Assembly (NCBI GenBank): GCA_017625695.1
Contig: JAGAKI010000062.1
Span: forward strand, 1 to 34,328
DNA from: Clostridia bacterium
GTDB lineage: Bacteria; Bacillota; Clostridia; UMGS1840
Length of the DNA: 34,328 nucleotides
Direction of reading: 5' to 3'
Numbering within the stretch: position 1 is the first letter of the stretch; each line of letters starts with the position of its first letter. The notes beneath the pieces were generated by a model. The model made no database searches, was not told the DNA's origin, and saw nothing but the letters and a program-made list of their open reading frames with translations. Positions 1 through 34,328 of the stretch are shown here, one piece after another. The translations under genes were made by a program, and so were the position numbers.

Positions 1-1007
1 TTTCAAAATGCGAGTTTAGAACTTTTCAAAATTTTCAGGAAGTGTTTGGGGACGAATACTACCTGTGGAATGTTGAGCCGAATCGTAACCAGAATTCCAG
101 TCAGTTTCTCCAGGAAATGATACATAAGCTTTTGTATGAAAACGAATGTTTGATTTTGGATGTGGGAGGAAAACTTATTGTCGCCGATGGCTTTTATCAG
201 GAAGAGTATGCGGTTAACGCCAACCGTTTCAGCCGGGTACACAAAAATAATTTTACTTTTTCCAAGACGTTTTCGATGGATGAAGTAATGTATCTGAAGT
301 TGAATAATGACAGTATCAAAGATTTGTTTTCTGAACTGTGTCGTGGGTATGAAAAACTTTCCGGAGAAGCGATTGAAAAGTATATCAAATCCGGTGGCAA
401 TAAAGGGATTTTGAAGATTTCTTCTATTGCCAAAGGAAAGCCTGATTTTGAAGAAAATTATAAAAAATTGATGAACGACTATTTTTCTACGTATTTTAAC
501 GGTAAGAATGCTGTTCTCCCGTTATTTGAAGGTTATGATTTCACACAGCCTGCGGGAGACGGTACCAAGAAGTCAACATCCGAGATTGATGATATCAGAA
601 AAATTACCGATGCAGCTTTTGAAAAGGTCGGCCAGGCTTTTAAAATTCCGCCTGCTTTGATGCGGGGCGATATCGCAGATGTGGAAAATGCCACTGATAA
701 TATGCTGACGTTTGCTATTGATCCTCTTTGTGATATGATTCAAGAAGAGGCGAATCGTAAACGATACGGAAAGGATGTTCTCAAAGGAGACTATCTGATG
801 ATTGATACTAACTGTATCAAACACATTGATATTTTCCAGAAAGCAGAACAAGTTGACAAGCTTATTTCGAGTTCAATGTATTGTGTTGATGAATTACGAA
901 GAAAGGCAAGAGATGCCGAGCTTCGTACCGGATTTGCAAAAAAATATTTCATAACCAAAAATTATGAGGAAAACAAAGAGAATGGAGGTGGAGAAGGTGA
1001 AGCATAA
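1..1007 (+). CDS. Portal protein (3' part; gene begins at 34046)
   Basis: HK97-type portal, the dodecameric ring at the capsid vertex through which DNA is packaged and ejected. The gene is split by the arbitrary break of a circular genome. Joining the TTG start at 34046 to this end gives one frame with no stop and a 382-residue protein, normal for the family. The C-terminal half has a typical portal pattern: the RGDIADVENATDNML stretch, then a DPLCDMIQEEANRK helix before an Asp/Lys-rich segment. It sits directly between large terminase and a ClpP-like protease, the classic order. An internal GTG at 42 is not a real start. The product is confident from order plus sequence. Confidence 0.93.
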   Translation, partial: SKCEFRTFQNFQEVFGDEYYLWNVEPNRNQNSSQFLQEMIHKLLYENECLILDVGGKLIVADGFYQEEYAVNANRFSRVHKNNFTFSKTFSMDEVMYLKLNNDSIKDLFSELCRGYEKLSGEAIEKYIKSGGNKGILKISSIAKGKPDFEENYKKLMNDYFSTYFNGKNAVLPLFEGYDFTQPAGDGTKKSTSEIDDIRKITDAAFEKVGQAFKIPPALMRGDIADVENATDNMLTFAIDPLCDMIQEEANRKRYGKDVLKGDYLMIDTNCIKHIDIFQKAEQVDKLISSSMYCVDELRRKARDAELRTGFAKKYFITKNYEENKENGGGEGEA

Positions 1008-5594: not shown

Positions 5595-6008
5595 TTATTT
5601 GAGATTTAGTTTTTCTATCAATGCGGTTTGCAGAACCTGAGAAAAATTGATGTTGTTTTCCAGTGCTTTTGCATTGAGCCATGCCGGAAGAGTCACGGTG
5701 CGATTAATAGATTTATTTTCTTGTGCAGCGCGAATAGAAGGCATGAATACATCAATCACGCTAATGCATTCGTTTGAATCCAATTCCTCCATTAAAGATT
5801 TGACAGAGGTTGGCTCCGGAATGATATCTCCATCCTGTTCCATTCCGAACAAATGTAATCCTAACGCTTCTTTGGCACACAGAAGTGCTTCTGCTTCGGT
5901 TTCTCCGCTGGTGGCACATCCGGGTAAATCCGGAAATGTAACTGCAATTTCATATCCTTCTTCGAATGTTAAAATTGCAGGATAAATATAGTTGGTTGGT
6001 TGTTTCAT
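5595..6008 (-). CDS. hicB: HicB antitoxin
   Basis: Antitoxin that binds HicA and represses its own operon. The 137-residue protein has the HicB N-terminal fold with the hallmark VTFPDLPGCATSGETEAEAL (about residues 24-43). The C-terminal region (NRTVTLPAWLNAKALENNIN, then FSQVLQTALIEKL) looks like a ribbon-helix-helix DNA-binding domain. Its start has AGGAG 8 bases upstream, a stronger site than that of hicA, which would favour antitoxin excess. It is second in the operon, 42 bases after hicA, in the usual toxin-first order. It lies antisense to the late tail operon. Confidence 0.92.
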   Translation of the reverse strand: MKQPTNYIYPAILTFEEGYEIAVTFPDLPGCATSGETEAEALLCAKEALGLHLFGMEQDGDIIPEPTSVKSLMEELDSNECISVIDVFMPSIRAAQENKSINRTVTLPAWLNAKALENNINFSQVLQTALIEKLNLK

Positions 6009-6050
6009 AACCTAAGCTCCTTTCGATTATGCGGGGGGAAAGCGGGATTC

Positions 6051-6245
6051 TTAAAACAGAATCCCTGCTTGCTTTCCAATACTTTTTAAGGTTTTTGGTG
6101 GTATATCCTTACATGGATGTTTTATTGTGACCTTGCCTTGCTTTACATCATGTTTGAATTGGTGGTGACTTCCTTCTATAGCTACCAGATACCAACCATC
6201 CTCTTGCAGTATTTTGATTACCTCTCTTGAAGAGTAGCTTTTCAT
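6051..6245 (-). CDS. hicA: HicA toxin, mRNA interferase
   Basis: A 64-residue HicA toxin, an RNA-degrading protein with a double-stranded-RNA-binding-like fold. The diagnostic elements are all present: SSREVIKILQEDGW at the N-terminus, the catalytic GSHHQF motif with His27, KVTIKHP, and the closing IPPKTLKSIGKQAGI. It appears intact. A weak ribosome site (GGGAAAG) precedes the ATG. It is the first gene of a leftward two-gene operon driven by a consensus promoter at 6270-6298. It probably acts as lysogen-borne cargo (stability or anti-phage); that role is inference. Confidence 0.92.
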   Translation of the reverse strand: MKSYSSREVIKILQEDGWYLVAIEGSHHQFKHDVKQGKVTIKHPCKDIPPKTLKSIGKQAGILF

Positions 6246-16492: not shown

Positions 16493-16879
16493 ATGATGAA
16501 ATTGATTAAAGTGATGATAGGAGCTGTATGCGGTATGTTGCACTTCTTATTCGGTGAATTTGACATTCTTCTGATTGCTTTACTGGTGTTGGTAATTGTT
16601 GACTACATAACAGGTGTATTTGCAGCCATTTATGAAAAACGATTGAATTCCGGTACAGGCTTCCGTGGAATTTTGAAGAAGGTGGCAATTCTTTTGGTTG
16701 TAATGGTGTCGCAAATCATCGGACAAGTTGTTGGCGTTGAGTGGCTCCGTTCTGCTGTGATTGGTTTTTACCTTGCCAATGAAGCAATCTCTATTTTGGA
16801 AAATGCCGGGAAGCTTGATATTGGTATTCCGCAAAAACTGCTTGATGTGTTGGAACAACTGAAACAGGATAAGGAATAA
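16493..16879 (+). CDS. Holin, phage_holin_4 family
   Basis: A 128-residue membrane protein of the toxin-secretion/phage-lysis holin family. It has an N-terminal hydrophobic helix (MIGAVCGMLHFLFG), a second helix with the family hallmark LLIALLVLVIVDYITGVFAA, the conserved KRLNSGTGFRGILKK loop, then two further hydrophobic helices (ILLVVMVSQIIGQVV; AVIGFYLANEAISILENAG). The polar C-terminus is cytoplasmic. Two adjacent ATGs open the gene; an internal ATG at 16514 could give a shorter form. The order lysin then holin is the reverse of the most common one. Confidence 0.93.
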   Translation: MMKLIKVMIGAVCGMLHFLFGEFDILLIALLVLVIVDYITGVFAAIYEKRLNSGTGFRGILKKVAILLVVMVSQIIGQVVGVEWLRSAVIGFYLANEAISILENAGKLDIGIPQKLLDVLEQLKQDKE

Positions 16880-16881
16880 GG

Positions 16882-16912
16882 AAAAGAGGGACCGAAACGG
16901 TCCCTCTTTTTT
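16882..16912 (+). terminator. Terminator of the late operon
   Basis: A 13-bp stem of AAAAGAGGGACCG with CGGTCCCTCTTTT around AAA, followed by more T residues, placed 3 bases after the holin stop. It is a strong intrinsic terminator. The A-run on its left flank could also serve the convergent leftward gene. Confidence 0.9.
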
Positions 16913-16915
16913 GTG

Positions 16916-17095
16916 CTATTGGTTTTTCTTCAGGTATTCATCTACAAAATTATTGATGATAGAGTAAATGCTTTCTCCGTTTGCCTGGGTGGCAGATTTT
17001 AGCTGTTCATATTTTTCTGAATCCAACCATACCCGAAGCTGTTTTTTCTTTGATAAATAATTTTTTTGTGGAGAATAATCAGGCTTTTGAGACAT
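16916..17095 (-). CDS. Small ribbon-helix-helix-like DNA-binding protein
   Basis: A 59-residue protein with basic N-terminal residues (QKNYLSKKK), a beta strand QLRVWLDSEKYEQLK, and helices around GESIYSIINNFVDEYLKK. The strand-helix-helix order and size fit the Arc/CopG ribbon-helix-helix class. I chose ATG 17095 (AAAGGAT 7 bases upstream). A longer reading from 17146 adds 17 unlike residues that overlap the upstream gene. It is last in a leftward cluster starting at the promoter at 17463-17491. That promoter contains a palindrome which this protein might bind (inference). Confidence 0.65.
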   Translation of the reverse strand: MSQKPDYSPQKNYLSKKKQLRVWLDSEKYEQLKSATQANGESIYSIINNFVDEYLKKNQ

Positions 17096-17100
17096 TAGGG

Positions 17101-17265
17101 TTATCCTTTCTGTTTGATGGTTTGAATGATGCGGACAATGAGCCATACAAGTACCAAAGCATAGAATAAAACAGACCAGATGGATGCATTGTCAGATGAA
17201 ACTGCGTGTAATAATACCAACAAAGGTATCAGTAAATCGTTCATTTTTGAAAAAAATACTTGCAT
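17101..17265 (-). CDS. Small two-helix membrane protein
   Basis: A 54-residue predicted membrane protein with two hydrophobic segments (NDLLIPLLVLLHAV and LFYALVLVWLIVRIIQ) and a basic end KQKG. I chose ATG 17265, preceded by an A/G-rich stretch (AAGAAAG). A longer frame from 17352 would overlap the 26-residue peptide gene and contains polar, unconvincing residues. It ends 5 bases before the start of the RHH-like gene, so the two are likely co-transcribed. Its start overlaps the -35 box of an opposing rightward promoter. Function unknown. Confidence 0.5.
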   Translation of the reverse strand: MQVFFSKMNDLLIPLLVLLHAVSSDNASIWSVLFYALVLVWLIVRIIQTIKQKG

Positions 17266-17288
17266 CTTTCTTTTTTGTATGGTATACT
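17260..17288 (+). promoter_or_regulatory. Rightward promoter facing the 26-residue peptide gene
   Basis: TTGCAT (17260-17265) and TATACT (17283-17288) are 17 bp apart. Transcription would begin near 17295 and run antisense through the small peptide gene. Confidence 0.55.
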
Positions 17289-17294
17289 GTAGAT

Positions 17295-17418
17295 GGAAGG
17301 GGAGCAAGCTCCCCGTTCCGTCCAGGCTACTACTTGAGTTTGAGTATCGCATTGACGATGGTTGCGATTCCGATTATCAACTCCAGGGTAGCCATTATTT
17401 TTTCTACCATATTTTTTC
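17295..17418 (+). ncRNA. Candidate antisense RNA to the 26-residue peptide mRNA
   Basis: A predicted RNA of about 120 nt that starts with a strong hairpin (GGAA-GGGGAGC / GCTCCCC-g-TTCC, 17295-17319). It covers the whole peptide frame and ends at a weak hairpin with GGTAG/CTACC arms followed by T-rich sequence near 17409-17418. The ends are inferred from promoter and hairpin positions only. The layout is like known type I antitoxin RNAs that converge on their toxin mRNA. Confidence 0.4.
17330..17410 (-). CDS. 26-residue hydrophobic peptide, type I toxin-like
   Basis: A short reading frame with an excellent ribosome site (AAAGGAG, 7 bases before ATG) and a perfect consensus promoter 53 bp upstream. 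The peptide reads MVEKIMATLELIIGIATIVN and ends in Leu/Lys-rich residues: one membrane-spanning helix with a basic tail. This resembles the general build of type I toxins (TxpA/BsrG/holin-like toxins), though it lacks their exact family motif. A facing promoter at 17260-17288 could make an overlapping antisense RNA. A leader-peptide role is the main alternative. Confidence 0.55.
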   Translation of the reverse strand: MVEKIMATLELIIGIATIVNAILKLK

Positions 17419-17462
17419 TCCTTTCGTAATACTTGGGTTTGTTTCCCTCACCCTGTATCTAT

Positions 17463-17491
17463 ATTATACCATATAGGGCACTATATGTCAA
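17463..17491 (-). promoter_or_regulatory. Promoter with embedded palindrome for the leftward small-peptide cluster
   Basis: On the minus strand TTGACA (17486-17491) and TATAAT (17463-17468) have a 17-bp spacer, a perfect consensus promoter. The palindrome ATATAGGGCACTATAT (17471-17486) fills the spacer, an ideal position for a repressor that blocks polymerase. Confidence 0.8.
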
Positions 17492-17541
17492 TACTTTTTT
17501 GAAAAAAAGTTTAAAATTTTTTATATTTTTTTGGTAGTGAA

Positions 17542-17577
17542 AAGCCGGAAGTTTCAACGCTTCCGGCTTGTTTTTTT
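17542..17577. terminator. Terminator at the end of the lysogeny operon
   Basis: AAGCCGGAAG (17542-17551) pairs with CTTCCGGCTT (17560-17569), followed rightwards by GTTTTTTT and leftwards by TTTT. It sits just past the leftward membrane protein gene and can end transcripts from both sides. Confidence 0.8.
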
Positions 17578-18385
17578 ATGTTTGTGATTTTTTAGCTTCC
17601 AGTTCTTGTACAATGTCGATTGCTTCTTTGGCACTTTCCAACTCTTTCAACAGCTCGGTTGGAGTTCTTTCGGAGAAAGTAAATAAGTTTTCAATGTTTA
17701 CTGCAGACAAATATGCATTTTTTGCTTTTTTATAATAGAAATTGATTTGCTTAGGTTCCTCTGCAGTCAGTAAGGACATAGTAGCTTTGTGTGCGGTATT
17801 GAGGTGGCGGCATAAAATATCCGATGCATTGATGAGGGTGTCTAAGCTTAGCGGAATTTTTCTTGTTTGATTAACTTCTTTTTTTACGGAAAAGACATAG
17901 CAGATTTTTTGTATCAGTAACCCGGTAGATATAACTGCCATTGCATATAGGAAAAAGTGTGCAAAATTGAAATCGTAATATGGTATGTCAGATGTATAGA
18001 TAGAAAATCCGATGCTCATACACCAGGCGACTGCTCCTACCAGAGAATAGGCGACTATCCATTGCTTGAACTGTCTGAGGTCATATTTTGGAATTTGTCC
18101 CCAATCGGCATATTCTTTGACGGGATGAGCGGAGCCGGAAGGAGAAGCAGAGGTTCCGCTGCTGCTTGTTGAACTTCCCAAAATGCTGTCTGCTACATCA
18201 TAGGAACTGACAGTAGTTTTATTATAAACTTTATTGTAGACGGCTTTTTTTGGGTTGTTGAGATATCCCATTCCTTTTTTACCGTATGCCGGGTTAAAGG
18301 TACTTTTGACACTCCTTGTTATCCGCCCGGTAGTTCTTGCTTTGATGGAACGCTTTACAGACGGGGTTCTCATTCCTATTTTCAT
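17576..18385 (-). CDS. Basic two-helix membrane protein of the lysogeny operon
   Basis: A 269-residue protein. I recall the type from Firmicutes prophages but know no function for it. The N-terminal about 60 residues are very basic with KIGMRTPSVKRSIKARTTGR and NPAYGKKGMGYLNNPKKAVY. A Ser-rich linker (about 68-85) follows, then two membrane helices (WIVAYSLVGAVAWCMSIGF; FFLYAMAVISTGLLIQKICY) and a cytoplasmic helical C-terminus ending in ELESAKEAIDIVQELEAKK. I chose ATG 18385 (GGAGGA 8 bases upstream) rather than the longer frame from 18499. It is expressed leftwards after repressor and peptidase, so it is probably made in lysogens. Superinfection exclusion is a reasonable guess but unproven. 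Confidence 0.75.
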   Translation of the reverse strand: MKIGMRTPSVKRSIKARTTGRITRSVKSTFNPAYGKKGMGYLNNPKKAVYNKVYNKTTVSSYDVADSILGSSTSSSGTSASPSGSAHPVKEYADWGQIPKYDLRQFKQWIVAYSLVGAVAWCMSIGFSIYTSDIPYYDFNFAHFFLYAMAVISTGLLIQKICYVFSVKKEVNQTRKIPLSLDTLINASDILCRHLNTAHKATMSLLTAEEPKQINFYYKKAKNAYLSAVNIENLFTFSERTPTELLKELESAKEAIDIVQELEAKKSQT

Positions 18386-18443
18386 AGCGGGATTCCTCCT
18401 TTTTATATTATAACAGCAAACAGACAATCCCTTTTGTTTTTTG

Positions 18444-19124
18444 TTACGGGTTACATACCTTGCAGGGAGTATACACTTCCGGGAGACTGCTTTTATCAAC
18501 GGGGAACCCGTTCACTCTGATATATTCGCAGTATTGGGTGTGATACTTTTTCCCGGTAGGGGTGATGTAAACCGTTTCGGTAATTGCTATGTTTTCTGTT
18601 ATGGTGTTTGTTTTTGTTTCTTGCTCTGCGACTGTAGGAACAGCCGCATTGTTTTCGTTGCGTTGTGTAAATGTGAATAGTAACAATAGAATCAGCAGAA
18701 TCCAGCCCAGCCAAGAAAAGAACTGTTTGAAGAACCAAAATAACGGATAGCAGTTTTTATGATATTTTGCTACATAATAAACAAAGTTTTCTGCCTCCAG
18801 TTCGTTTCGTTTCCGTGGCTTTTCCAGGTAGGAAAGACGGTAGGAATGTTTGATAAAATGGCAGAATTCGTGTAAAAGTGCTTCCGTTTTATCGGGTTCA
18901 GAGCAGGCTTCGTCGATAAAGATAAAACAAGTCTGATTCCCGTAATAGATAAAACCGGGAGTTTTTTCATCGGGGGTAAGCTCGTATATCAGTTCCGGGT
19001 CTTCCTGATAGGCTTTGATTCTTATTTTGGTATGGATATGAATGTAGTGCTTGAGATTTTCATAGGTCAGCTTTTCAGGAAACTGAAGGGCAAATCTCAG
19101 GGCTTCTATTTTGATGGCAAGCAT
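18444..19124 (-). CDS. ImmA/IrrE-like metallopeptidase with membrane helix and Cys/His-rich tail
   Basis: The N-terminal domain carries the zinc peptidase motif HEFCH (His85-His89) with a downstream Glu pair near 110 (NELEAENFVYYVAKYH), as in ImmA/IrrE proteins that cleave phage repressors or partners. Unlike simple ImmA, it has a membrane helix (about 137-152, LGWILLILLLLFTF). Its C-terminal domain has TGKKYHTQYCEYIRV ... YTPCKVCNP, a H-x3-C ... C-x2-C zinc-binding pattern. It is the second gene of the leftward operon after the repressor. AGGAG precedes its ATG. It likely acts on the neighbouring XRE repressor after a signal; that link is inference from family and position. Confidence 0.8.
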   Translation of the reverse strand: MLAIKIEALRFALQFPEKLTYENLKHYIHIHTKIRIKAYQEDPELIYELTPDEKTPGFIYYGNQTCFIFIDEACSEPDKTEALLHEFCHFIKHSYRLSYLEKPRKRNELEAENFVYYVAKYHKNCYPLFWFFKQFFSWLGWILLILLLLFTFTQRNENNAAVPTVAEQETKTNTITENIAITETVYITPTGKKYHTQYCEYIRVNGFPVDKSSLPEVYTPCKVCNP

Positions 19125-19173: not shown

Positions 19174-19614
19174 CTACGATTGTTTCAACTCCCTTTTTAA
19201 CATTTCCAATTCGGTAATATCTTTGGTTTTCTTTTCTTGCCCTGTTTTAGCGACAGATTTTGCAGTGAGAGAAGCTTCCTCATCGGCAAGCTCATAGGCG
19301 TAGTTTAATACCTTGACTTTGTTCTGTGAATTCAACTTTTGGTAAACGGTTACTAATTCATTGGTGTATGTATCAGTATTTACTGATTTGCATTCAATAG
19401 TGGAATTTGTTTCGCTTATTAAATGTTCAGGTGTAACACCAAATGCGTTGGCGATAGCAATTATTTTGTCCATCGCTGGCTGAGTTTCATTTTGTTCAAG
19501 GTCGTAAATAAAATTTCTGTTAATACCGCATTGTTCTAGGACAGACTTTACTGATATTTTTGTTTGTTTTGAAACTGCTCGGATGTTGTTGGCAAGTTGT
19601 TTGGTTGATAGCAT
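19174..19614 (-). CDS. XRE-family lysogeny repressor (CI-like)
   Basis: A 146-residue regulator with an N-terminal helix-turn-helix (LSTKQLANNIRAVSKQTKIS, then INRNFIYDLEQNETQPAMDK IIAIANAFGV) and a helical C-terminal part suitable for dimerisation (VYQKLNSQNKVKVLNYAYEL). There is no LexA-type self-cleavage Ser/Lys domain, which fits induction through the adjacent ImmA-like peptidase. ATG 19614 has AGGAGAT 6 bases upstream; a frame from 19725 has a poor extension. It faces a rightward promoter with an 18-bp palindromic operator 31 bp away, the same operator class recurring at 21759-21806. It is the best candidate to bind both. Confidence 0.88.
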   Translation of the reverse strand: MLSTKQLANNIRAVSKQTKISVKSVLEQCGINRNFIYDLEQNETQPAMDKIIAIANAFGVTPEHLISETNSTIECKSVNTDTYTNELVTVYQKLNSQNKVKVLNYAYELADEEASLTAKSVAKTGQEKKTKDITELEMLKRELKQS

Positions 19615-19639: not shown

Positions 19640-19668
19640 TTGACATACAGAAATATCTGTATTATAAT
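19640..19668 (+). promoter_or_regulatory. Rightward promoter with repressor operator, copy 1
   Basis: TTGACA (19640-19645) and TATAAT (19663-19668) have a 17-bp spacer, a perfect consensus. The 18-bp operator ATACAGAAATATCTGTAT spans 19645-19662. A minus-strand TATAAT at 19661-19666 may serve the repressor gene, with only a weak -35. Confidence 0.85.
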
Positions 19669-21758: not shown

Positions 21759-21812
21759 ATACAGAAAAAACTGTATTCCTATATTGACATACAGAAAAAT
21801 CTGTATTATAAT
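21759..21812 (+). promoter_or_regulatory. Early rightward promoter with two repressor operators, copy 2
   Basis: TTGACA (21784-21789) and TATAAT (21807-21812) have a 17-bp spacer. The operator ATACAGAAAAATCTGTAT (21789-21806) fills it, one base different from copy 1 at 19645. A second operator, ATACAGAAAAAACTGTAT (21759-21776), lies 30 bp upstream, on the same helix face about three turns away. This should drive the lytic early operon under repressor control. Confidence 0.87.
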
Positions 21813-22600: not shown

Positions 22601-22768
22601 ATGTCAACAAAAGTAATTACATTGGAAAATGTAAGGGTTACATATGGTATCAAAAAACAAAAGCTTCACCGGGATCTTCTGGAAGGGTTGAAGCTGATAG
22701 TCGGGACAGGCTGTTTATTCTTTGGCATTATGGTGTTTTGGATGATTGCTTATGCGTTAGGTGGCTGA
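22601..22768 (+). CDS. 55-residue protein with C-terminal membrane helix
   Basis: A polar, basic N-terminal part (STKVITLENVRVTYGIKKQK) and a C-terminal membrane span (LIVGTGCLFFGIMVFWMIAY ALGG in outline). ATG 22601 has CAGGAGG 9 bases upstream. Reading further upstream would translate the GC-rich structured element and is rejected. It lies immediately after that element, so its expression may depend on the RNA fold. Family unknown. Confidence 0.65.
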   Translation: MSTKVITLENVRVTYGIKKQKLHRDLLEGLKLIVGTGCLFFGIMVFWMIAYALGG

Positions 22769-22790
22769 TATGAAATTTTTATGTAAAAAA

Positions 22791-22851
22791 GAAAAAAGCC
22801 CGTATGCTCGGCAAAGCACACAGGCACACCCGATTGGGTGAAAAAAAACTC
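22791..22851 (-). ncRNA. Short leftward RNA gene, OOP-like in layout
   Basis: A complete transcription unit on the minus strand. A consensus promoter lies at 22858-22886, and the predicted start is near 22851. A small hairpin CACCC-AATC-GGGTG (22827-22840) follows. A terminator hairpin then joins GCCTGTGTGC with GCATACGGGC (22816-22825 / 22798-22807), which pairs perfectly (with two G-U) only in minus-strand RNA, followed by TTTTTTCTTTTTT. The RNA would be about 60 nt with no reading frame. It lies opposite to the early operon, like lambda OOP RNA. Confidence 0.7.
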
Positions 22852-22857
22852 AGTTAC

Positions 22858-22886
22858 AGTATAGCATACTAAATAAAATATGTCAA
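22858..22886 (-). promoter_or_regulatory. Promoter of the short leftward RNA
   Basis: On the minus strand TTGACA (22881-22886) and TATACT (22858-22863) are 17 bp apart. The -35 box sits within the leader of the rightward gene that starts at 22900. Confidence 0.75.
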
Positions 22887-34045: not shown

Positions 34046-34328
34046 TTGAATTTTGTCGATAGACTGAAACGGTTATTCAACGGTAAGAAAACCGTTTATT
34101 TAACAGAAAAATTTTCTTCAGATGTTATGGAACTTGCGATTACAGAATTTGCTATCAATGTGGCAATCAGTCTGATAGCCGGAGCGGTTTCAAAATGCGA
34201 GTTTAGAACTTTTCAAAATTTTCAGGAAGTGTTTGGGGACGAATACTACCTGTGGAATGTTGAGCCGAATCGTAACCAGAATTCCAGTCAGTTTCTCCAG
34301 GAAATGATACATAAGCTTTTGTATGAAA
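34046..34328 (+). CDS. Portal protein (5' part; continues at position 1)
   Basis: TTG start 5-6 bases after ACAGGAGTG. The protein opens MNFVDRLKRLFNGKKTVYLT then FAINVAISLIAGAVSKCEFR, the usual portal N-terminus with a hydrophobic helix. It continues without a stop to the window end, where the last 141 bases equal positions 1-141. Across the junction the frame matches the rest of the gene exactly. It must be counted as one gene with the entry at 1-1007. Confidence 0.93.
   Translation, partial: MNFVDRLKRLFNGKKTVYLTEKFSSDVMELAITEFAINVAISLIAGAVSKCEFRTFQNFQEVFGDEYYLWNVEPNRNQNSSQFLQEMIHKLLYE
34188..34328 (+). repeat. Terminal overlap identical to positions 1-141
   Basis: All 141 bases match the window start. 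This is the mark of a circular assembly, and 141 is a k-mer length used by a common metagenome assembler. It lies inside the portal gene, so a true terminal repeat or attachment site is unlikely. Confidence 0.95.

What the first reader, a model, noticed from the sequence alone, without database searches (positions are those of the whole stretch)
17260..17491. Possible type I toxin-antitoxin unit: 26-residue membrane peptide with a facing antisense promoter
A strong leftward promoter with a palindrome in its spacer and a strong ribosome site drive a 26-residue single-helix peptide with a basic end. A rightward promoter (TTGCAT, 17 bp, TATACT) points back at it, and its RNA would start with a stable hairpin and cover the peptide frame. 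This is the convergent layout of TxpA/RatA-like systems. It differs in being followed by a membrane protein and an RHH-like gene, one of which might regulate the palindromic promoter.
Basis: partly seen in the sequence, partly recalled or inferred. Interest (0 to 1): 0.7.

Follow-up and report, generated by a model that had tools for sequence, protein, structure and literature searches.

The report
Phage membrane peptide with antisense RNA
A bacterial virus carries a tiny membrane peptide gene whose strong promoter faces a second, opposing promoter, so it looks like a self-silenced toxin of a known general kind, but nobody has yet shown that the peptide is toxic or that the silencing RNA is made.

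Summary
In a circular 34-kb temperate phage, a consensus leftward promoter (17491-17463) with a 7-4-7 palindrome in its spacer drives a 26-residue single-helix peptide (17410-17330) with a strong ribosome site. A rightward promoter (17260-17288) opposes it. Its RNA would start with a stable hairpin, cover the whole peptide gene and its leader, and end at a rightward terminator (17542-17577). A promoter model trained on 40 host promoters places both among the seven sites that stand out in the window. Only 2 of 7 strong-ribosome-site small ORFs in the window are hydrophobic; this is one. Downstream lie a small membrane ORF without a good ribosome site and a well-supported ribbon-helix-helix gene (ParG/Arc-like).

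The type I toxin-antitoxin reading is plausible but unproven. The peptide has no relative in any collection searched, and phages related through neighbouring genes lack the unit. TxpA/RatA is not the best match: the predicted antisense RNA spans the whole gene, not the 3' end. Layout is closer to the polycistronic yonT-yoyJ/SR6 system of SPbeta. The RHH gene plus internal antisense promoter recalls P22 immI (Arc, sar RNA). I commit to an RHH-autoregulated, antisense-silenced membrane peptide, probably toxic, at about 0.5.

The parts
17463..17491 (-). Pleft: TTGACA-17-TATAAT, extended -10 (TATGGTATAAT)
   Evidence: 12 of 12 consensus matches; top score of host-trained model
17470..17487 (.). 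palindrome CATATAG-TGCC-CTATATG in the Pleft spacer; candidate RHH operator
   Evidence: only exact copy in window; chance about 1%; role inferred
17417..17424 (-). ribosome site AAAGGAGA of the peptide
   Evidence: sequence
17330..17410 (-). 26-aa peptide MVEKIMATLELIIGIATIVNAILKLK, one predicted membrane helix
17295..17319 (.). hairpin: 5' end of the rightward RNA, and on the other strand just after the peptide stop
   Evidence: folds on both strands
17260..17288 (+). Pright: TTGCAT-17-TATACT with extended -10 and upstream A-tract (17244-17259)
   Evidence: 7th distinct site among 68,536 positions in the host-trained model
17295..17577 (+). predicted antisense RNA, about 283 nt, covering the peptide frame, its leader and Pleft
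   Evidence: promoter plus terminator; fold z -6.1; transcript not observed
17542..17577 (+). intrinsic terminator of the rightward RNA
   Evidence: found on + strand only; 11-pair stem then GTTTTTTTAT
17101..17265 (-). 54-aa membrane ORF (start uncertain; start codon overlaps the Pright -35)
   Evidence: hydropathy 2.43; no good ribosome site; no homologue
16916..17095 (-). 59-aa ribbon-helix-helix protein, ParG/Arc-like
   Evidence: Pfam ParG above cut-off; phrog_3180; PDB 1p94 E 1.7e-4
16882..16910 (-). intrinsic terminator ending the leftward operon (perfect stem, facing the holin gene end)

Best explanation
A self-contained cargo unit of a temperate phage. A strong promoter transcribes a 26-residue membrane peptide, a small membrane ORF and an RHH protein as one RNA. 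The RHH protein binds the palindrome in the promoter spacer and represses its own operon. An opposing promoter inside the operon makes an RNA complementary to the peptide message, which blocks its translation and leads to RNase III decay. The peptide is probably toxic to the membrane when the antisense RNA runs out, so the unit works like a type I toxin-antitoxin system that helps keep the phage. Shown: the two promoters as strong sequence matches, terminators, frame, ribosome site, hydropathy and RHH homology. Inferred: both transcripts, RHH autorepression, silencing and toxicity.
For: Both promoters are among the seven outstanding sites of the window under a host-trained model. Of the other five, one lies just upstream of hicAB, two carry the same ATACAGA-TCTGTAT palindrome in the spacer, and one precedes a terminated RNA. 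The terminator at the far end faces rightward although neighbouring genes run leftward. No + strand ORF with a strong ribosome site follows Pright. Strong ribosome site plus hydrophobic frame: 0 of 3,000 shuffles. RHH. A palindrome in the promoter spacer seems to be how this phage places operators.
Against: No relative of the peptide anywhere searched: phages and plasmids by tblastn, 9 genomes of the order, 391 of the class (7 others, E 0.007-0.71, in open frames of 68-1165 aa), 388 of the phylum. So no conservation test. Pright has a poor -35. The RHH relative sits without peptide or palindrome. No transcript or toxicity data.
Confidence: 0.5

Rival explanations
1. The peptide is incidental or a mere leader; the unit is an RHH-autoregulated cargo operon for a membrane protein (exclusion or lysogenic conversion), and the opposing promoter tunes RHH and membrane-protein levels by interference.
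For: RHH is the best-supported gene; membrane ORF is strongly hydrophobic; operon ends in a clean terminator.
Against: The peptide has a strong ribosome site and the membrane ORF has none; the antisense RNA covers the peptide, not the membrane ORF start.
Confidence: 0.25
2. The peptide is a phage membrane-active protein (a small holin-like or lysis-timing peptide) next to the lysis genes, kept off in the lysogen by RHH and antisense RNA.
For: It lies 450 bp beyond the holin gene.
Against: Opposite strand to the lysis genes and bounded by its own promoter and terminators; the phage already has a Phage_holin_4_1 holin (E 3.2e-37).
Confidence: 0.12
3. Pright is inactive, and the layout is a chance facing of a strong promoter and an A-rich extended -10 sequence.
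For: Only 3 of 6 in the -35; without the A-tract shuffles give a mean of 1.9 such sites per window.
Against: With the A-tract no shuffled window matches it, and a rightward terminator follows.
Confidence: 0.13

Closest known systems
yonT-yoyJ/SR6 of prophage SPbeta (Bacillus subtilis; passages of PMC5848175)
   Same: Prophage type I unit on a polycistronic mRNA: toxin first, second small gene next with a poorly placed ribosome site; antisense promoter between them; both promoters have extended -10 boxes.
   Different: SR6 is 100 nt and overlaps only about 65 nt of the yonT 3' end and 30-40 nt of yoyJ; here the RNA would be about 283 nt, span the whole peptide gene and miss the second ORF. Peptide is 26 aa, not 58. 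An RHH gene ends the operon.
TxpA/RatA and the convergent Clostridioides difficile type I units (passages of PMC6563280)
   Same: Convergent toxin and antisense genes, mostly on prophages; small hydrophobic peptide with a charged end.
   Different: No family match; 26 aa is below the 28-60 and 34-59 aa quoted there; whole-gene overlap.
P22 immunity I region: arc, mnt, ant and sar RNA (passages of PMC2629481 and PMC7968456)
   Same: Cargo region with an Arc-type RHH gene and an antisense RNA that blocks translation of a gene of the operon. Arc acting between the -35 and -10 of its promoter is recalled, not looked up.
   Different: No antirepressor; RHH gene is last, not first; target is a membrane peptide; sar lies in the arc-ant intergenic region.
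ParG of plasmid TP228 (PDB 1p94; the plasmid name is recalled)
   Same: Closest solved sequence to the RHH protein (E 1.7e-4).
   Different: No ParA-type P-loop in any frame of the window, so not a partition pair.

Membership tests
type I toxin-antitoxin systems (general) | toxin under 60 aa, hydrophobic, membrane helix, charged C-terminus | tested here: met
   26 aa, hydropathy 2.16, ends KLK; definition from PMC6563280
type I toxin-antitoxin systems (general) | antisense RNA made from the toxin locus | tested here: inconclusive
   promoter and terminator predicted; no RNA data
type I toxin-antitoxin systems (general) | peptide toxic, RNA neutralises it | not testable with these tools
   needs experiment
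TxpA/RatA | sequence match of toxin or RNA to a curated family | tested here: not met
   no peptide hit in Pfam, PHROGs, NCBIfam up to E 1; no Rfam hit at gathering score nor a type I antitoxin among 12 weak ones. That RatA has an Rfam model is recalled
TxpA/RatA | overlap confined to the 3' ends (recalled) | tested here: not met
   the only rightward terminator after Pright in 16700-17800 is at 17542-17569, beyond the whole gene
yonT-yoyJ/SR6 | polycistronic mRNA with second small gene at the antisense promoter | tested here: met
   by prediction: no terminator between peptide and RHH gene; Pright -35 overlaps the membrane ORF start
yonT-yoyJ/SR6 | YonT or YoyJ sequence homology | not tested
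   no direct alignment made
P22 immI-like control | Arc-type RHH protein in the operon | tested here: met
   phrog_3180 Arc-like repressor E 3.7e-6
P22 immI-like control | RHH protein binds an operator in the promoter | tested here: inconclusive
   palindrome present, absent upstream of the Ructibacterium relative
P22 immI-like control | antirepressor gene in the operon | tested here: not met
   only the three small ORFs lie between promoter and terminator
ParFG partition | ParA-type ATPase partner | tested here: not met
   no KGGxGK[ST] in six frames

The most novel reading that the evidence does not exclude
A two-layer bistable switch: an RHH autorepressor and a head-on antisense promoter in one operon, so that repression of Pleft frees Pright from collision and locks the toxic peptide off, while loss of RHH flips it on. 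This would join type II-style (RHH) and type I-style (RNA) control in one phage addiction or abortive unit.
Probability: 0.2. Interest if true: 0.65.

Novelty: new variant of a known kind. Interest (0 to 1): 0.4.

Why it matters
Type I toxins are short and often lack homologues, so homology searches miss many; this locus was found by anatomy alone and gives a candidate with no relative in any collection searched. If the RHH protein does repress the promoter, it would be a type I-like unit with its own protein autoregulator. A search of open-access full texts for 'type I toxin-antitoxin', 'ribbon-helix-helix', 'antisense RNA' and 'prophage' together listed 7 papers, none with a title on such a unit (listing only, not a proof of absence).

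Tried and rejected
Homology for the peptide: none beyond chance. Membrane ORF: none in viral contigs, phages or plasmids; 42 other genomes of 391 gave weak hits; the best (G191, E 0.0012) lies on the strand opposite a long gene and is chance; the other 41 were not looked at one by one. Two viral-contig scans and a first genome-contig scan with the RHH found nothing.

Synteny: 14 of 21 loci found with the holin (of these L017 has almost no DNA beyond the holin) and 21 of 22 found with the gene at 17576-18388. None shows the peptide or this unit by the filters used (small ORFs with a ribosome site, and larger ORFs); weak or differently built units could be missed. The metallopeptidase at 18444-19124 found no relatives.

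Inverted similarity of the two promoter regions (77-78% over 22 and 27 nt) looked like a duplicated promoter. Host promoters share much of it (56 matches against 3 for the reversed pattern), so a shared promoter type explains it.

Plasmid partition rejected: no ParA. Structure of the RHH as a monomer (pLDDT 76.6) shows three helices, not the ribbon; it neither confirms nor excludes the fold. No fold search was run. Rfam weak hits are below every gathering score. A paper search for Arc and its operator gave nothing used.

Caveats of the promoter test: the training pattern was written with both promoters in view, so the -10 part favours them and the rank of Pleft is by construction; dinucleotide shuffles do not keep A-tracts, which helps Pright. 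My second checkpoint note says all 21 holin loci were examined; it was 14 of 21, as above.

Full report
Setting. The window is one whole contig (C50) of a 1.97-Mb draft genome in a small order (9 genomes held). Its two ends share exactly 141 bp, inside one open frame near the terminase that I read as the portal gene, so the contig is a circle of about 34,187 bp. It holds tail, endolysin and holin genes, a Cro/C1-type repressor gene, a serine recombinase and a terminase (endolysin, portal, tail and terminase are named from reading, not from a family search). It is a complete temperate phage, seen as a circle rather than inside the chromosome.

The unit lies between the lysis genes, which run rightward and end at 16879, and the lysogeny genes, which run leftward and end at 17576. 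It runs leftward, from a promoter at 17491-17463 to a terminator at 16910-16882. The promoter matches consensus at all 12 positions and has the TG of an extended -10. A perfect 7-4-7 palindrome fills its spacer at 17470-17487. By simulation about 1% of random spacers hold as good a palindrome, and 1 of 40 host promoters does: suggestive, not strong. Two other phage promoters (19640 and 21784, +) carry ATACAGA-4-TCTGTAT palindromes in the same place, probably operators of the phage repressor, so this phage does seem to place operators in spacers.

The first frame is the 26-residue peptide MVEKIMATLELIIGIATIVNAILKLK (17410-17330), with AAAGGAGA just before the ATG. The window holds only 7 ATG frames of 20-60 codons with such a site on either strand; 2 of the 7 are hydrophobic enough for a membrane helix, this one and one at 22601-22768. 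Of 3,000 shuffles of the leader-plus-frame stretch, 21 gave any such frame and none a hydrophobic one. I take the peptide as a real product, with toxicity unknown.

The opposing promoter (17260-17288) has a poor -35 and an excellent extended -10, TATGGTATACT. A plain consensus scan misses it. I built a model from 40 promoters of the same genome that includes the A-tract upstream. Seven distinct sites in the window stand well above the rest: 17491-, 6298-, 21784+, 30880+, 19640+, 22886- and 17259+ (scores 34.7 to 21.2; the next separate site scores 12.8). None of 20 shuffled windows has a site as good as the last. Without the A-tract the same site is 9th and shuffles give a mean of 1.9, so the support leans on the A-tract, which shuffling does not preserve. 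The training pattern was also written with both promoters in view.

The RNA from this promoter would begin at about 17295 with a hairpin of -16.5 kcal/mol. It would have no frame with a strong ribosome site and would end at 17542-17577, where an 11-pair stem is followed by GTTTTTTTAT on the + strand. The scan found this terminator only in the rightward sense, although all genes nearby on that side run leftward. That asymmetry is further support for a rightward RNA. The same hairpin on the sense strand follows the peptide's stop, so the two RNAs would show each other complementary loops; whether they kiss is inference.

Downstream are a 54-residue membrane ORF without a proper ribosome site, whose likely start codon overlaps the opposing -35, and the RHH gene with a good site. 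The RHH protein passes the Pfam ParG cut-off (29.2 against 21.4 bits), matches an Arc-like phage family, and its nearest solved sequence is ParG. There is no ParA. In Ructibacterium gallinarum a 59-61% identical RHH gene lies beside a CRISPR array with a short hydrophobic ORF before it, but no matching peptide and no TATAG-CTATA palindrome. That weakens, but does not exclude, the idea that RHH, palindrome and peptide belong together.

Mechanism. I think the RHH protein represses its own operon through the palindrome, and the antisense RNA silences the peptide message. The peptide is probably membrane-toxic when silencing fails. The nearest worked example of the layout is yonT-yoyJ/SR6 on SPbeta (PMC5848175, abstract and passages seen): toxin first on a polycistronic RNA, a second weakly translated gene next, antisense promoter between, extended -10 boxes on both. 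It differs in the length and reach of the antisense RNA. The nearest example of the control logic is P22 immI, with an Arc-type RHH protein and sar RNA (PMC2629481 and PMC7968456, passages seen; PMC5415839, passages seen, only names sar). The C. [quoted passage not shown] it only removes the best test.

Verdict. Observation confirmed with small corrections; interpretation partly supported. This is a good candidate for a variant type I-like unit, not an established one.

Noticed in passing
window 22601-22886: A second hydrophobic 55-aa ORF with strong ribosome site (22601-22768 +) faces a strong leftward promoter (22886-22858) that would make a 66-nt, terminated, well-folded RNA (22851-22786; -26.9 kcal/mol, z -5.05) antisense only to its 3' UTR.
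   Followed up: partly
window 19640-19668 and 21784-21812: Two promoters with the same palindrome ATACAGA-4-TCTGTAT in the spacer, probable operators of the phage repressor at 19174-19611.
   Followed up: no
window 5595-6245: A leftward hicAB toxin-antitoxin pair (HicA 6.4e-22, HicB-like 2.4e-14) inserted among rightward tail genes, with one of the seven outstanding promoters.
   Followed up: no
window 1-141 and 34188-34328: Exact 141-bp terminal overlap within an open frame near the terminase: the contig is a circular phage genome.
   Followed up: yes
window 17489-17560; L005 around 2206-2277: 72 nt of terminator, A-tract and -35 have a 90% copy on host contig C6 after a small ORF and near a phage-like gene.
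   Followed up: partly
L067 4739-5700: In the Ructibacterium gallinarum relative the RHH gene sits beside a CRISPR array with cas1, cas2 and part of a cas9-like gene (named from reading), preceded by a 30-aa hydrophobic ORF.
   Followed up: partly
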